From a virus, in IMG/VR virus record IMGVR_UViG_3300009514_000788, positions 1 through 21,556 of that record: a stretch of DNA of 21,556 nt; one strand, written 5' to 3'. Shown here piece by piece: positions 14,755 to 21,556 of the stretch; the first letter of the stretch is position 1; each line of letters starts with the position of its first letter. The notes under the pieces are model-generated. The model saw only the letters and a list, made by a program, of their open reading frames with translations, had not been told where the DNA came from and searched no databases. Position numbers and translations under genes: made by a program.

Positions 14755-15186
14755 TTACATCCCCATCAGCATCTGGCGAATGTGGTCAGCGTCGGCAGCC
14801 GAGTCTTTCATCTGGTCTTCCATGAACATGCGAATTCTTTCCCCTTCGACTGACTTAACCTGTGAAGCTTGGTGCATTCGCTCCATGTAGTTTTCAACGA
14901 CTTCCAATTCCATGGAATGGGCATATCTGAGAATATCTGCGGGGTCAGTAAGATTCGATGCAAACCCACTAACCGTGGCAGTTGGCTTGCCGCCACAAGC
15001 GAGAATCATATCGCCGAACTGCTGGATATGCAGCATCTCGCCTTGGGCTTCGCGGAGTAGAAAAGATCGAATTGCCTCACGGTGAAGACCATTCACCATA
15101 ACGGCGGCATGCATATAGAAATGCCAGTGCTTGTATTCGTTGGAAAGGTCAGAATTAAGTAGGGTCAACAATGCGTCGAGCGTCAT
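14755..15186 (-). CDS. Bacterioferritin-like diiron protein
   Basis: A 143-residue four-helix protein. Ligand-type residues occur at bacterioferritin-like spacing: Glu17 (NEYKHW), Glu50 and His53 (QGEMLHI), Glu93 (SMELEVV), and Asp132 with His135 (ADADHIRQML). The E-xx-H and D-xx-H pairs are the usual diiron ligands, with Asp in place of the last Glu and the final pair shifted by five residues. It may oxidise and store Fe(II) or detoxify peroxide. AGGAG precedes ATG 15186. It heads the operon with the CYTH gene and is divergent from a Dps-like gene, so the two ferritins are probably regulated together. Confidence 0.78.
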   Translation of the reverse strand: MTLDALLTLLNSDLSNEYKHWHFYMHAAVMVNGLHREAIRSFLLREAQGEMLHIQQFGDMILACGGKPTATVSGFASNLTDPADILRYAHSMELEVVENYMERMHQASQVKSVEGERIRMFMEDQMKDSAADADHIRQMLMGM

Positions 15187-15302
15187 ATTTGTCTCCTGTA
15201 TGTCTATAGTATCGTGTTGAAGAGAGTCCGATGTTTAGCTTTTCCTTCACTTTTTCTGAAATCAGGGAAAGGCTTCTATATATCTTCGACGTGAAGACAT
15301 AC
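15187..15302. promoter_or_regulatory. Divergent promoter region between two ferritin genes
   Basis: The palindromic CTATAG near 15201-15206 lies between the two genes and can give -10-like boxes on both strands (TACTAT or TATAGA on minus; TATAGT on plus). A TATATA box at 15277-15282 lies 20 bases before ATG 15303. The region could hold promoters for both genes. The plus frame is also open from ATG 15231, so part of it may be coding. Confidence 0.35.
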
Positions 15303-15773
15303 ATGCAATTTATCGAAAAGAAGGAATCCCTTGAAAGCAAAGATACCAAGGGCTTACTCCAAGAAACGCTAGCAGTTCTTAGGGCTCTCTCCTGGAGTCA
15401 CTACGCTAGCCACTGGCAGTCAAAGGGCTCCAACTTCTATGGCAATCATCTGCTGTTTCAGCGGCTCTACGAGGCCGTCGATGATGAATTCGACACGCTT
15501 GCAGAGAAACTCGTAGCCTATTTTGGAGAAGAAGCCGTCAAGATGGATGACGCCATGGATCGAGCTAAAGTCTGGGTCGAGAAGTGGAGTAAAACTGGAG
15601 ACGTGGTTGATCGGGCTCTCAACGCCGAGCAAGACCTTCAACGCGTACTGGCCGAAGTTTACGACAGAATCAAGAATTCTGACGACATGAGCTTGGGACT
15701 AGATGATTATCTAATGGCCGTCGCTAACACCCATGAGACTCATCTTTACTTGGTTCAACAGGTCAAGCGTTAA
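15303..15773 (+). CDS. dps: Dps-like ferritin (DNA-protection/iron storage)
   Basis: A 156-residue protein from ATG 15303. His37 (SHWQSKG), His49 (NHLLF), Asp64 and Glu68 (DEFDTLAEK) occur at spacings 12, 15 and 4, the same as the Dps ferroxidase ligands His51, His63, Asp78 and Glu82 of E. coli; the Asp67 equivalent is Gln53. HWQSKGSNFYGNHLLFQRLY is the classic Dps 'HW...G.nF...H..f' motif. Dps forms a 12-mer that oxidises Fe(II) with H2O2 and often binds DNA, though the N-terminus here is not strongly basic. ATG 15231 is an in-frame alternative start giving 180 residues. Its stop overlaps the convergent peptidase gene through TTAA (15770-15773). Confidence 0.85.
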   Translation: MQFIEKKESLESKDTKGLLQETLAVLRALSWSHYASHWQSKGSNFYGNHLLFQRLYEAVDDEFDTLAEKLVAYFGEEAVKMDDAMDRAKVWVEKWSKTGDVVDRALNAEQDLQRVLAEVYDRIKNSDDMSLGLDDYLMAVANTHETHLYLVQQVKR

Positions 15774-16777
15774 GAGGACGTGTTTCTCGCCGACATAGTC
15801 TTGTCGATTTCCATCAGCACTTCGAACGCAAATCGTGCAACCTCTGTCATTCCATCGTAATCGACTTTTTCAGCAGTATCTTTAGTCGTGTGGTAATAGG
15901 GATGATCGCCGGTATGGAAGAAGATGATTGGTACTCCTCTGCGAGCCCAATGAGCGTGATCAGAACGACTGGTGGCTGTATCTGAAGTCTTTGCAGTGAA
16001 GCTGTACTTATCATCGACGCGATGCAGGATATCAGTCAAAGTTTTGTTGCGGCCAGAACCATAGGTTCCCAACTGGCTTTGATTCTTGAGATATCCCACC
16101 ATATCGAAATTCAGCATAGCGACGGTGTTTTCATGAGGAAAGCATGGATGTTTTGCATAAATCTCTGAACCAATAAGCCCGTCTTCTTCTGAAGAAAAAG
16201 CAATAAACACAATGCTGTAATTCAGTTGGTCTTTGATCTTGCTGACGGCTTCAGCAATTTCCAGCAGTGTGGCGATTCCAGAGGCATTGTCATCAGCCCC
16301 ATTGTAGATGCCTCGTGAGTTGCTACCCAAATGATCTAAATGGGCTCCCAGGACAATCACTTTGTCTTTGTTCTTTCCTGGAAAGTAACCAACGATATTG
16401 CTTGTCATGATTCCCTTGTAGCGGAACTGTTGATGAAAGCCCTTATCTGACAGACATGGCTGCATGCCGTAAGACATGAATTCATGAAAGACATAGTTAT
16501 AAGCAAGCGTGAATCCCTCAGTTCCAGGTTTGCGGCCAGCCAACTCGTCTGAGGCCAAGTATTCGACAAACTCCTTAAGCTCAGGAGTTGTAATGCTTTG
16601 TACTGCACCAGCAATTGTAGCCTTGGGAAGGATTGGCGGAGACGGGACGGGGTGCGGAGTAACGATTGGCGTTTCAAACTCAGGAACACTTGGTTCGGAG
16701 ATGAAAGCCTTATCGATAAAGCCAAAGACAAAATAGAAGATAACCGCCGCAACGGTGATTTTGATGAATTTCTGCAT
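15770..16777 (-). CDS. Membrane-anchored M28 family zinc peptidase
   Basis: A 335-residue protein from ATG 16777, with AGGAGG 7 bases upstream; the ATG at 16795 would place that site inside the gene. Residues 8-22 are a hydrophobic anchor or signal, followed by a Pro-rich linker (28-52). M28 motifs are present in order: AHLDH (His146, Asp148), GADDNASG (Asp162/163), SSEED (Glu197, Glu198), NFDMVGY (Asp225) and DHPYYHTTKDT (His296). These supply the two zinc ions and the catalytic Glu of this aminopeptidase family. The active domain should lie outside the cytoplasmic membrane. A small membrane protein gene lies 21 bases upstream in the same unit. Confidence 0.85.
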   Translation of the reverse strand: MQKFIKITVAAVIFYFVFGFIDKAFISEPSVPEFETPIVTPHPVPSPPILPKATIAGAVQSITTPELKEFVEYLASDELAGRKPGTEGFTLAYNYVFHEFMSYGMQPCLSDKGFHQQFRYKGIMTSNIVGYFPGKNKDKVIVLGAHLDHLGSNSRGIYNGADDNASGIATLLEIAEAVSKIKDQLNYSIVFIAFSSEEDGLIGSEIYAKHPCFPHENTVAMLNFDMVGYLKNQSQLGTYGSGRNKTLTDILHRVDDKYSFTAKTSDTATSRSDHAHWARRGVPIIFFHTGDHPYYHTTKDTAEKVDYDGMTEVARFAFEVLMEIDKTMSARNTSS

Positions 16778-16798
16778 GAGACGCCTCCTAGTCATAGT

Positions 16799-19654: not shown

Positions 19655-21547
19655 ATGGCATGGTGGGACGTATACAAGTTATTCTACTGGCTCTTTAAGC
19701 CAGACCCAATTTCTGAATTCGAAGGTCTTAAAGATATTGAAGGCGAAGCCGTAACTTCTCCTGATATGCCCGACATTCGGGGTCAATGGTCAGGTGGCCC
19801 AGGTGGGCCGCTTCGCGTTAAGGTCGGTGAGTCCGACTTCATTGATCTATCTAGTGTTACCAACCGCATTAGTCGGTACAAGGAATATGATCGTCTGGAC
19901 AATGTTCCGGAAATTCAAACAGCCTTGACCACATTTGCCGATGAAGCATGTGTATCGGGAGATACATTAGTAGCTACGCCATTTGGCTTTATTCCTATGA
20001 AGGAACTGGCCGAAAGCAAAAAATTAGACGATAAGTTCTTAGTCTACTGCTGGGACTTTAAGGCTAATGATTACACACTGGGCTGGGCCTACAATCCACG
20101 TAAAGTCAAAACTGCTAAAACCATCAAGGTTATGTTTGACAACGGCCAAATGCTTAACTGCACACCCGACCATCGAGTTCTACTCAAGAATGGTGAATGG
20201 GTTGAGGCTGGCGACTTGAAGCACGGAGATGAATTGACTCCTTTCTATCGCATCAAAGCCAATCAGAACCTCACGAAACTCAAAACCCAGCAATATCCTC
20301 GGGTATTTACGAACAATCGCGGCTGGATTCATGAACGTCAATTTCTTGACGAGTGGAAGACAGGCAAGCCCCTTCCAGGTATGGAAAGAGTCAATAAGAC
20401 TGTCCGCCTGATCCAACAGGGCCTCAATATGCGTGAAATTTCTGAAGCTATGGGTTATTGGTGGAAGACTATCGAAGCCTATCTTGCAAAGGAAGGTTTT
20501 GCTTACAAAGAGATGAAATGGATCGTCAATAAGTACGAAGATAGCCGTCGTGTAGTGGGCATCATCGATGGCGAGGAAATTGATGTTTACGATCTTTCCG
20601 TAGAAGAGCATGAGTGCTTTGCTACAGACTCCTGTATTGTTCACAACTGCCAAGAAGATGATGATGGTCATGTTTTCAAGGTCAAGACAAAGAACGAAGA
20701 AATCAAACACGAAATCGAATTCTTGCTCTACACAATGCTGGAAGTAAATGACCGCATCTGGAGTTGGGCCAAGAACCTCTATAAGTACGGAGACTTCTTT
20801 CTCGAAATAGTTACTGATCCATCAGAACCAAAGCGAGGCGTTCTTAAGATTCAGCCCTTGCCATCCGATTCAATTTACCGTATCGAAACTATCAAAGGTA
20901 AGTTGATCGAATTCCAGCAGTCTAAAGAAGGGCCTGACTTCAACTCTCTAGCGAGAGTTGAAGTCACCAAGGCATCTCAGGCTGAACTTGAACAGGCCAC
21001 AGCCCTGAGGTTTGTACCTGAGCAGATCATTCACATGAAAGTTGGCGATGATCGCAAATCTTTCTATCCCTATGGAGTTTCTGTAATCGAAGCAGCTAGG
21101 GGACCGGCTCATCAGCTACGCTTGATGGAAGATGCGATGTTAGTATATCGTTTGTGTTTGGTTGGGAATAGTAGAGTTAGAACACGTACTGGTTGGAAGT
21201 ACATTAAGGATATCGCACTAGGCGACGAGGTCTATAGCCTTAGCCATAAGAATGGCCTGATTCCCTCTATGGTGACTTGGCTTGTGGATAACGGAATTAA
21301 AATTTGGTTGTCTGGCTCAAGTAAGAACAGTGCAGAGAGAATGATGACCAGGGACAAGCTTGCATCAGATAAGGCAATGGAAATAGTAAAAAAGCGATAT
21401 CAGGAAAATAAACGATTGTACAAAAAATTATACAATTTTGATTTTGGCGACGACCTATCTGTGTTTGATAAGATAATTGATACTGACAATCTCAATGCAC
21501 AAGAGGTACTAGAGATTGCAAAATCCTTTGTAAGAGAAAAAATTTGA
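19655..21547 (+). CDS. Portal protein (T4 gp20-like) with two inteins, ending in a kinase fragment
   Basis: 630 codons from ATG 19655 (GGAG upstream). The host protein is a T4 gp20-like portal, recognised from the N-terminal MAWWDVYKLF and Trp/Pro-rich start, ISRYKEYDRLDNVPEIQTAL (72-91), FADEA joined to QEDDDGHVF, a central SWAKNLYKYGDFFLEI and MEDAMLVYRL (490-499). Residues 99-331 are a complete intein. A second intein begins at Cys501. After about 48 residues of it the frame becomes the C-terminus of a cytidylate kinase and ends at TGA 21545-21547. The distal half of the portal, normally starting 'RAPERR', is absent. As written, the gene cannot make a full portal without trans-splicing or further rearrangement. 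The fusion could also be an assembly error. Confidence 0.85.
   Translation: MAWWDVYKLFYWLFKPDPISEFEGLKDIEGEAVTSPDMPDIRGQWSGGPGGPLRVKVGESDFIDLSSVTNRISRYKEYDRLDNVPEIQTALTTFADEACVSGDTLVATPFGFIPMKELAESKKLDDKFLVYCWDFKANDYTLGWAYNPRKVKTAKTIKVMFDNGQMLNCTPDHRVLLKNGEWVEAGDLKHGDELTPFYRIKANQNLTKLKTQQYPRVFTNNRGWIHERQFLDEWKTGKPLPGMERVNKTVRLIQQGLNMREISEAMGYWWKTIEAYLAKEGFAYKEMKWIVNKYEDSRRVVGIIDGEEIDVYDLSVEEHECFATDSCIVHNCQEDDDGHVFKVKTKNEEIKHEIEFLLYTMLEVNDRIWSWAKNLYKYGDFFLEIVTDPSEPKRGVLKIQPLPSDSIYRIETIKGKLIEFQQSKEGPDFNSLARVEVTKASQAELEQATALRFVPEQIIHMKVGDDRKSFYPYGVSVIEAARGPAHQLRLMEDAMLVYRLCLVGNSRVRTRTGWKYIKDIALGDEVYSLSHKNGLIPSMVTWLVDNGIKIWLSGSSKNSAERMMTRDKLASDKAMEIVKKRYQENKRLYKKLYNFDFGDDLSVFDKIIDTDNLNAQEVLEIAKSFVREKI
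19949..20647 (+). mobile_element. Complete intein 1 in the portal gene (233 residues)
   Basis: The intein starts at Cys99 (CVSGDTLVATPFGFI, block A). It has block B NCTPDHRVL (TxxH, needed for the first acyl shift) and GEWVEAGDLKHGDEL. It ends DVYDLSVEEHECFATDS then VHN before +1 Cys (blocks F and G: His-Asn, Cys). All residues for self-splicing are visible, and splicing joins FADEA to CQEDDDGHVF. The middle (residues about 122-185) has RGWIHERQFLDEW and GKPLPGME, which resembles the start of an HNH homing nuclease but lacks the catalytic His-His-Asn. It is followed by a helix-turn-helix-like VRLIQQGLNMREISEAMGY. It is probably a mini-intein with a decayed endonuclease. Confidence 0.88.
21155..21300 (+). 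mobile_element. N-terminal fragment of a second portal intein
   Basis: From Cys501 the sequence CLVGNSRVRTRTGWKYI is intein block A, followed by KDIALGDEVYSL and SMVTWLVDNGIK, the usual stretch before block B. The TxxH of block B and everything beyond are missing. The site, after MEDAMLVYRL, is where gp20-like portals continue into RAPERR, a conserved position typical for inteins. GC here (about 44% by hand count) matches the portal gene. With the block B histidine absent this fragment alone should not splice. Confidence 0.75.
21301..21547 (+). pseudogene. cmk: C-terminal fragment of an archaeal/CPR-type cytidylate kinase
   Basis: In frame after the intein fragment, the sequence reads IKIWLSG, SAERMMTRDKLASDKAMEIV, then RYQENKRLYKKLY and DFGDDLSVFDKIIDTDNL. 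This follows the end of the archaeal-type CMP kinase family ('IKvyL.aple.RaeRia.Re...yeeA.....eRe..e..RYk..YgiDi.DLSiYDlvIdT..l..eev.eii'). The P-loop and substrate-binding N-terminus are absent, so it cannot be an active kinase. GC falls to about 34% (85 of 247 bases) against about 44% in the portal gene, a sign of foreign origin. Confidence 0.72.
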
Positions 21548-21556
21548 TGCAGCAAC

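What the first reader, a model, noticed from the sequence alone, without database searches (positions are those of the whole stretch)
21155..21547. Portal intein fragment fused in frame to the tail of a cytidylate kinase
The second intein of the portal gene stops before block B and continues without a break into the C-terminal part of an archaeal/CPR-type CMP kinase. The GC falls from about 44% to about 34% at the join near 21300 (hand counts). The two halves share an 'xIK' at the junction (DNGIK in the intein, IKIW in the kinase). The possibilities are a real recombination that fractured the portal gene, an unusual split intein whose other part and portal C-half lie elsewhere, or an assembly chimera near the window end. 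If real, the head portal would have to be rebuilt by trans-splicing, or a kinase would be tied to an intein, which I do not know to be described.
Basis: partly seen in the sequence, partly recalled or inferred. Interest (0 to 1): 0.85.

Follow-up and report, generated by a model that had tools for sequence, protein, structure and literature searches.

The report
Phage–archaeon chimera at a contig end
The apparent fusion of a phage portal intein to a kinase is almost certainly an assembly error that joined a large phage's DNA to a scrap of an ammonia-oxidising archaeon's chromosome at a short stretch where the two genes happen to look alike, so it is not a real fused gene.

Summary
The reading is correct: one frame (19655-21547) runs from a T4-type portal through a complete mini-intein and 49 residues of a second intein into the last ~90 residues of a CMP kinase, then stops 9 bases before the record ends. 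The window is the whole IMG/VR record, a linear fragment.

The two sides come from different genomes. Up to 21301 the sequence is a huge-phage portal; a relative (L156) has the same second intein intact, 411 residues ending VVSN|TRAPERR, followed by the complete portal. From 21278 on it is the cmk gene of a Nitrososphaerota archaeon (35 of 35 database matches, 58-71% identical). In all 35, cbf5 starts inside the cmk stop codon; the window's last bases keep such an overlapping start.

In the overlap (about 21276-21301) both parents encode nearly the same eight residues (intein WFVNNGVQ, kinase WLVxNGIK, window WLVDNGIK). Joins at such short overlaps are typical of assembly or amplification chimeras. 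No viral record searched carries this kinase; 50 of 52 relatives have an uninterrupted portal at this site.

Verdict: terminal chimera, not a gene fusion, fractured portal or split intein. Raw reads were unavailable, so rare real recombination is not formally excluded.

The parts
19655..21154 (+). N-terminal half of a T4-gp20-type portal protein, interrupted by intein 1; real phage sequence
   Evidence: PF07230 E 2e-20; 44-55% identical to the portal of huge phage LR756511.1 with shared synteny TerL - antisense gene - portal
19949..20647 (+). portal intein 1, 233 aa, C...HN|C, complete, no LAGLIDADG match
   Evidence: TIGR01445 and TIGR01443 matches; homologue in 40 of 47 portal genes of relatives and in LR756511
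21155..21301 (+). N-terminal 49 residues of portal intein 2 (block A only), inserted at YRL|T
   Evidence: 65% identical to residues 1-49 of the intact 411-aa intein 2 of L156
21276..21301 (+). zone of double similarity = the join; fits both the intein (WFVNNGVQ) and the archaeal kinase (WLVxNGIK)
   Evidence: codon-by-codon comparison and sliding identity: intein identity falls from about 0.7 to 0.25 and kinase identity rises from about 0.3 to 0.75 across it
21278..21547 (+). C-terminal end of a Nitrososphaerota (d)CMP kinase gene, with its stop; foreign to the phage
   Evidence: 35 of 35 matches in genome contigs are archaeal, nearly all named as Nitrososphaerota/Thaumarchaeota, 58-71% identical; none in viral contigs or phages
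21544..21556 (+). probable first codons of the next archaeal gene, cbf5 (TTG ATG CAG CAA C, overlapping the cmk stop at offset -1)
   Evidence: 35 of 35 archaeal loci have cbf5 starting at exactly this -1 overlap; family. Only 13 bases, so suggestive

Best explanation
The last ~256 bases of the record are not phage DNA. They are the 3' end of cmk and the first bases of cbf5 from the chromosome of a Nitrososphaerota archaeon, presumably in the same sample. They were joined to the phage contig at a stretch of about 24-26 bases where the phage's second portal intein and the archaeal kinase gene are nearly alike, by a short-overlap merge during short-read assembly or by template switching during library amplification. 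In the living phage the portal gene most likely continues through a complete ~400-residue LAGLIDADG intein into the portal C-half, which lies on another contig. The open frame across the join follows from both genes being read in the same frame over the shared motif. Shown: the two origins, the zone of double similarity, the intact relatives, the terminal position. Inferred: that the joining step was artefactual.
For: Window is a whole linear virus fragment and the join is 255-280 bases from its end. Kinase tail is archaeal, Nitrososphaerota-like, in 35 of 35 matches, with kinase similarity starting at the W codon at 21278. In all 35 archaea cbf5 starts inside the cmk stop, and the window's last bases keep a start codon in that position. 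Intact intein 2 plus portal C-half in L156; uninterrupted portal in 50 of 52 loci. Intein 2 and the kinase are about 61% identical in the 26-base zone, a level reached by 0.25% of all ungapped placements of the two. Neither the portal C-half, the rest of intein 2, nor the kinase N-part is elsewhere in the record. No viral or phage record was found to hold the kinase tail. GC shifts from 45.6% to 34.1%, within the archaeal range of 26-37% for this stretch.
Against: No reads, coverage or assembly graph were available, so the artefact itself was not seen. Microhomology also marks some real illegitimate recombinations. Published simulations report chimeric contigs at all taxonomic levels but few virus-bacterium ones (PMC3901335), so such a join is uncommon a priori. 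The ORF stays open across the join, though the shared in-frame motif accounts for that.
Confidence: 0.96

Rival explanations
1. Real illegitimate recombination in a phage (or defective phage) genome placed an archaeal chromosome fragment inside intein 2, fracturing the portal gene.
For: The join is in frame, and short similarity of the kind that can guide illegitimate recombination is present.
Against: It would destroy an essential head gene; no viral record was found to carry the kinase; the archaeal piece looks like an untouched chromosomal operon end with a cbf5-like start following; it sits at the very end of a fragment.
Confidence: 0.03
2. An atypical split intein: the 49-residue piece is a functional N-fragment whose C-fragment and portal C-half are encoded elsewhere and joined by trans-splicing.
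For: Natural atypical split inteins with N-fragments of 25-37 residues are known (AceL-TerL, GOS-TerL, Cat-TerL; PMC11766414).
Against: The closest relative of this intein is contiguous with a LAGLIDADG endonuclease. The fragment does not end near a stop but runs into an unrelated kinase tail. No C-fragment is in the record.
Confidence: 0.01

Closest known systems
Chimeric contigs of metagenome assembly
   Same: Two unrelated genomes joined at a short shared stretch, near a contig end, with a change of composition and taxonomy
   Different: Here phage and archaeon rather than close relatives; the shared stretch lies in the same coding frame in both, so the chimera looks like a fusion gene
Contiguous LAGLIDADG intein at the YRL|T site of a T4-type portal (L156, IMGVR_UViG_3300005613_003763)
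   Same: Same insertion site and 65% identity over the 49 residues present
   Different: In the window it is cut off before block B and followed by kinase sequence
Nitrososphaerota (d)CMP kinase, TIGR02173, with cbf5 downstream
   Same: Last ~90 residues, stop codon and overlapping next start
   Different: The first ~95-100 residues, including the P-loop, are missing
Atypical split inteins (AceL-TerL, GOS-TerL) and fractured genes (Dassa et al. 2009)
   Same: Short intein N-fragment in a phage head/packaging gene
   Different: Not a stand-alone fragment, no C-fragment, nearest relative contiguous

Membership tests
Complete (splicing) intein - second portal intein | Block A with nucleophile at position 1 | tested here: met
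   C at 21155 and 65% identity to intact intein 2 of L156 over residues 1-49
Complete (splicing) intein - second portal intein | Blocks B, F and G with terminal Asn before C/S/T | tested here: not met
   No further intein 2 sequence anywhere in the record; present in L156
Split intein / fractured gene | A matching C-fragment fused to the portal C-half | tested here: inconclusive
   Neither is in the 21556-base record; the record is a fragment, so absence is limited evidence
Split intein / fractured gene | N-fragment ends as its own reading frame | tested here: not met
   Frame continues into the kinase tail
Archaeal (d)CMP kinase TIGR02173 (complete enzyme) | Curated whole-protein score 102.1, including the N-terminal P-loop half | tested here: not met
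   50.0 bits, model positions 81-166 only; N-terminal half absent
T4-type portal PF07230 | Match above Pfam's gathering score | tested here: met
   73.3 bits against a cut-off of 22.9, N-terminal half only
Chimeric contig | Two parts with different taxonomic origin and intact counterparts elsewhere | tested here: met
   Huge-phage portal and Nitrososphaerota cmk-cbf5
Chimeric contig | Shared or near-shared sequence at the join | tested here: met
   Zone 21276-21301
Chimeric contig | No reads truly spanning the join | not testable with these tools
   Raw reads not available

The most novel reading that the evidence does not exclude
A real phage lineage has a portal intein interrupted by recombination with an archaeal cmk gene, so that the portal must be rebuilt by trans-splicing or the genome is a defective recombinant.
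Probability: 0.03. Interest if true: 0.6.

Novelty: not a real feature. Interest (0 to 1): 0.04.

Why it matters
It matters mainly as a warning: a short in-frame match between unrelated genes can turn an assembly chimera into a convincing 'fusion protein' in a public virus record. The last ~280 bases of this record should not be used as phage sequence, and a kinase should not be counted among this phage's genes. If the join were real it would be a striking phage-archaeon recombinant, but nothing here points that way.

Tried and rejected
The 550-aa portal-plus-intein query found no viral loci, probably because its pattern seeds fell on variable parts; the portal segment alone worked. The 49-aa intein fragment as a query found nothing; that search reaches close relatives only, so the intein 2 relatives come from inspecting L155 and L156. 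A 15-base exact search of the join gave 115 chance-like matches and was not informative. A first codon comparison with L156 was one codon out of register and was redone. I first thought DNGIK belonged to the kinase alone, then saw in L156 that both parents encode a near-identical motif there, and dropped that idea.

Full report
What is in the sequence. The window is the whole of one linear IMG/VR virus record of 21556 bases. A single open frame runs from 19655 to 21547. It encodes, in order, the start of a T4-gp20-type portal (PF07230), a complete 233-residue intein (19949-20647, ending HN|C), more portal up to YRL, the first 49 residues of a second intein (from C at 21155), and the C-terminal end of an archaeal-type (d)CMP kinase (TIGR02173 positions 81-166 of 169; PF13189). 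The stop is 9 bases from the record's end. GC is 45.6% up to the join and 34.1% after it.

The phage side. The portal segment is 54% identical to that of LR756511.1, an uncultured phage genome of 595 kb, which has the same gene order: large terminase, small gene, antisense gene, portal. There the first intein is present at the same site and the portal reads on, YRL|TRAPERRCFYVD, without a second intein. Eighty portal loci from IMG/VR were fetched and 52 were inspected. Fifty read on through YRL (or its equivalent) into the portal C-half. One, L156, has a complete 411-residue intein at exactly the window's site, with LAGLIDADG and splicing domains, ending VVSN|TRAPERRVFYVD and followed by the whole portal C-half. 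The other, L155, has a similar intein start but its contig ends 69 bases into it. The window's 49 intein residues are 65% identical to L156's, up to 21301, with nothing recognisable after that.

The kinase side. The tail was searched in 84,980 prokaryote genomes: 35 loci were confirmed, all archaeal and nearly all named as Nitrososphaerota/Thaumarchaeota, 58-71% identical. In all 35 archaea the next gene is cbf5 and its start codon overlaps the cmk stop by the same offset. In the window a TTG lies at that offset and is followed by ATG CAG CAA C before the record ends; this fits but is only 13 bases. No relative of the kinase tail was found in the viral contigs or the phage records. The GC of the tail falls within the range of the archaeal tails, 26-37%.

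The join. When the window is compared codon by codon with the intact intein and with the archaeal kinases, similarity to the intein holds to about 21301 and then collapses, while similarity to the kinases begins at 21278. Over about 24-26 bases the window fits both: intein WFVNNGVQ, kinase WLVxNGIK, window WLVDNGIK. The intein of L156 and the archaeal genes are on average 61% identical over this zone, a level reached by 0.25% of all ungapped placements of the two. The join is therefore where two unrelated genes are unusually alike, and both are read in the same frame there, which explains why the frame stays open. The true parents may be more alike still, since L156 and the database archaea are only distant relatives of them.

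How it most likely arose. A short-overlap merge in a short-read assembly graph, or template switching during amplification, joined the phage contig to an archaeal fragment (inference). The terminal position, the two intact parents, the different organisms and the overlap all fit. Published simulations find chimeric contigs at all taxonomic levels, though few between viruses and bacteria (PMC3901335). The decisive evidence, the reads, could not be examined.

Rivals. A real recombination would break an essential gene and would have left a chromosomal operon end untouched at the edge of a fragment; I give it about 3%. An atypical split intein cannot be dismissed on length alone, because natural N-fragments of 25-37 residues exist (AceL-TerL, GOS-TerL, Cat-TerL; PMC11766414); but here the fragment is not free-standing, no C-fragment is present, and the closest relative is contiguous; about 1%.

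Verdict. The finding is a chimera at the end of a contig. The parts on either side are ordinary members of known families. Interest is low.

Noticed in passing
window 19949-20647: A 233-residue mini-intein without a LAGLIDADG match, containing a weak HTH_40-like segment, sits at the same portal site in 40 of 47 related portal genes and in LR756511; it looks nearly fixed in this phage group.
   Followed up: partly
L180, L201, L202, L205 (3' of the portal match): Portal genes of related phages carry apparent inteins at still other sites (for example LPGA|C in L180), so the gene is a repeated intein target.
   Followed up: no
L155 3229-3297: Another contig (IMGVR_UViG_3300015360_000907) also ends inside portal intein 2, 69 bases after its start.
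   Followed up: no
window 14755-15186 (-) and 15231-15773 (+): Two ferritin-like genes side by side on opposite strands in the phage.
   Followed up: no
window 15770-16795 (-): An M28-family peptidase with an N-terminal hydrophobic segment just upstream of the terminase.
   Followed up: no
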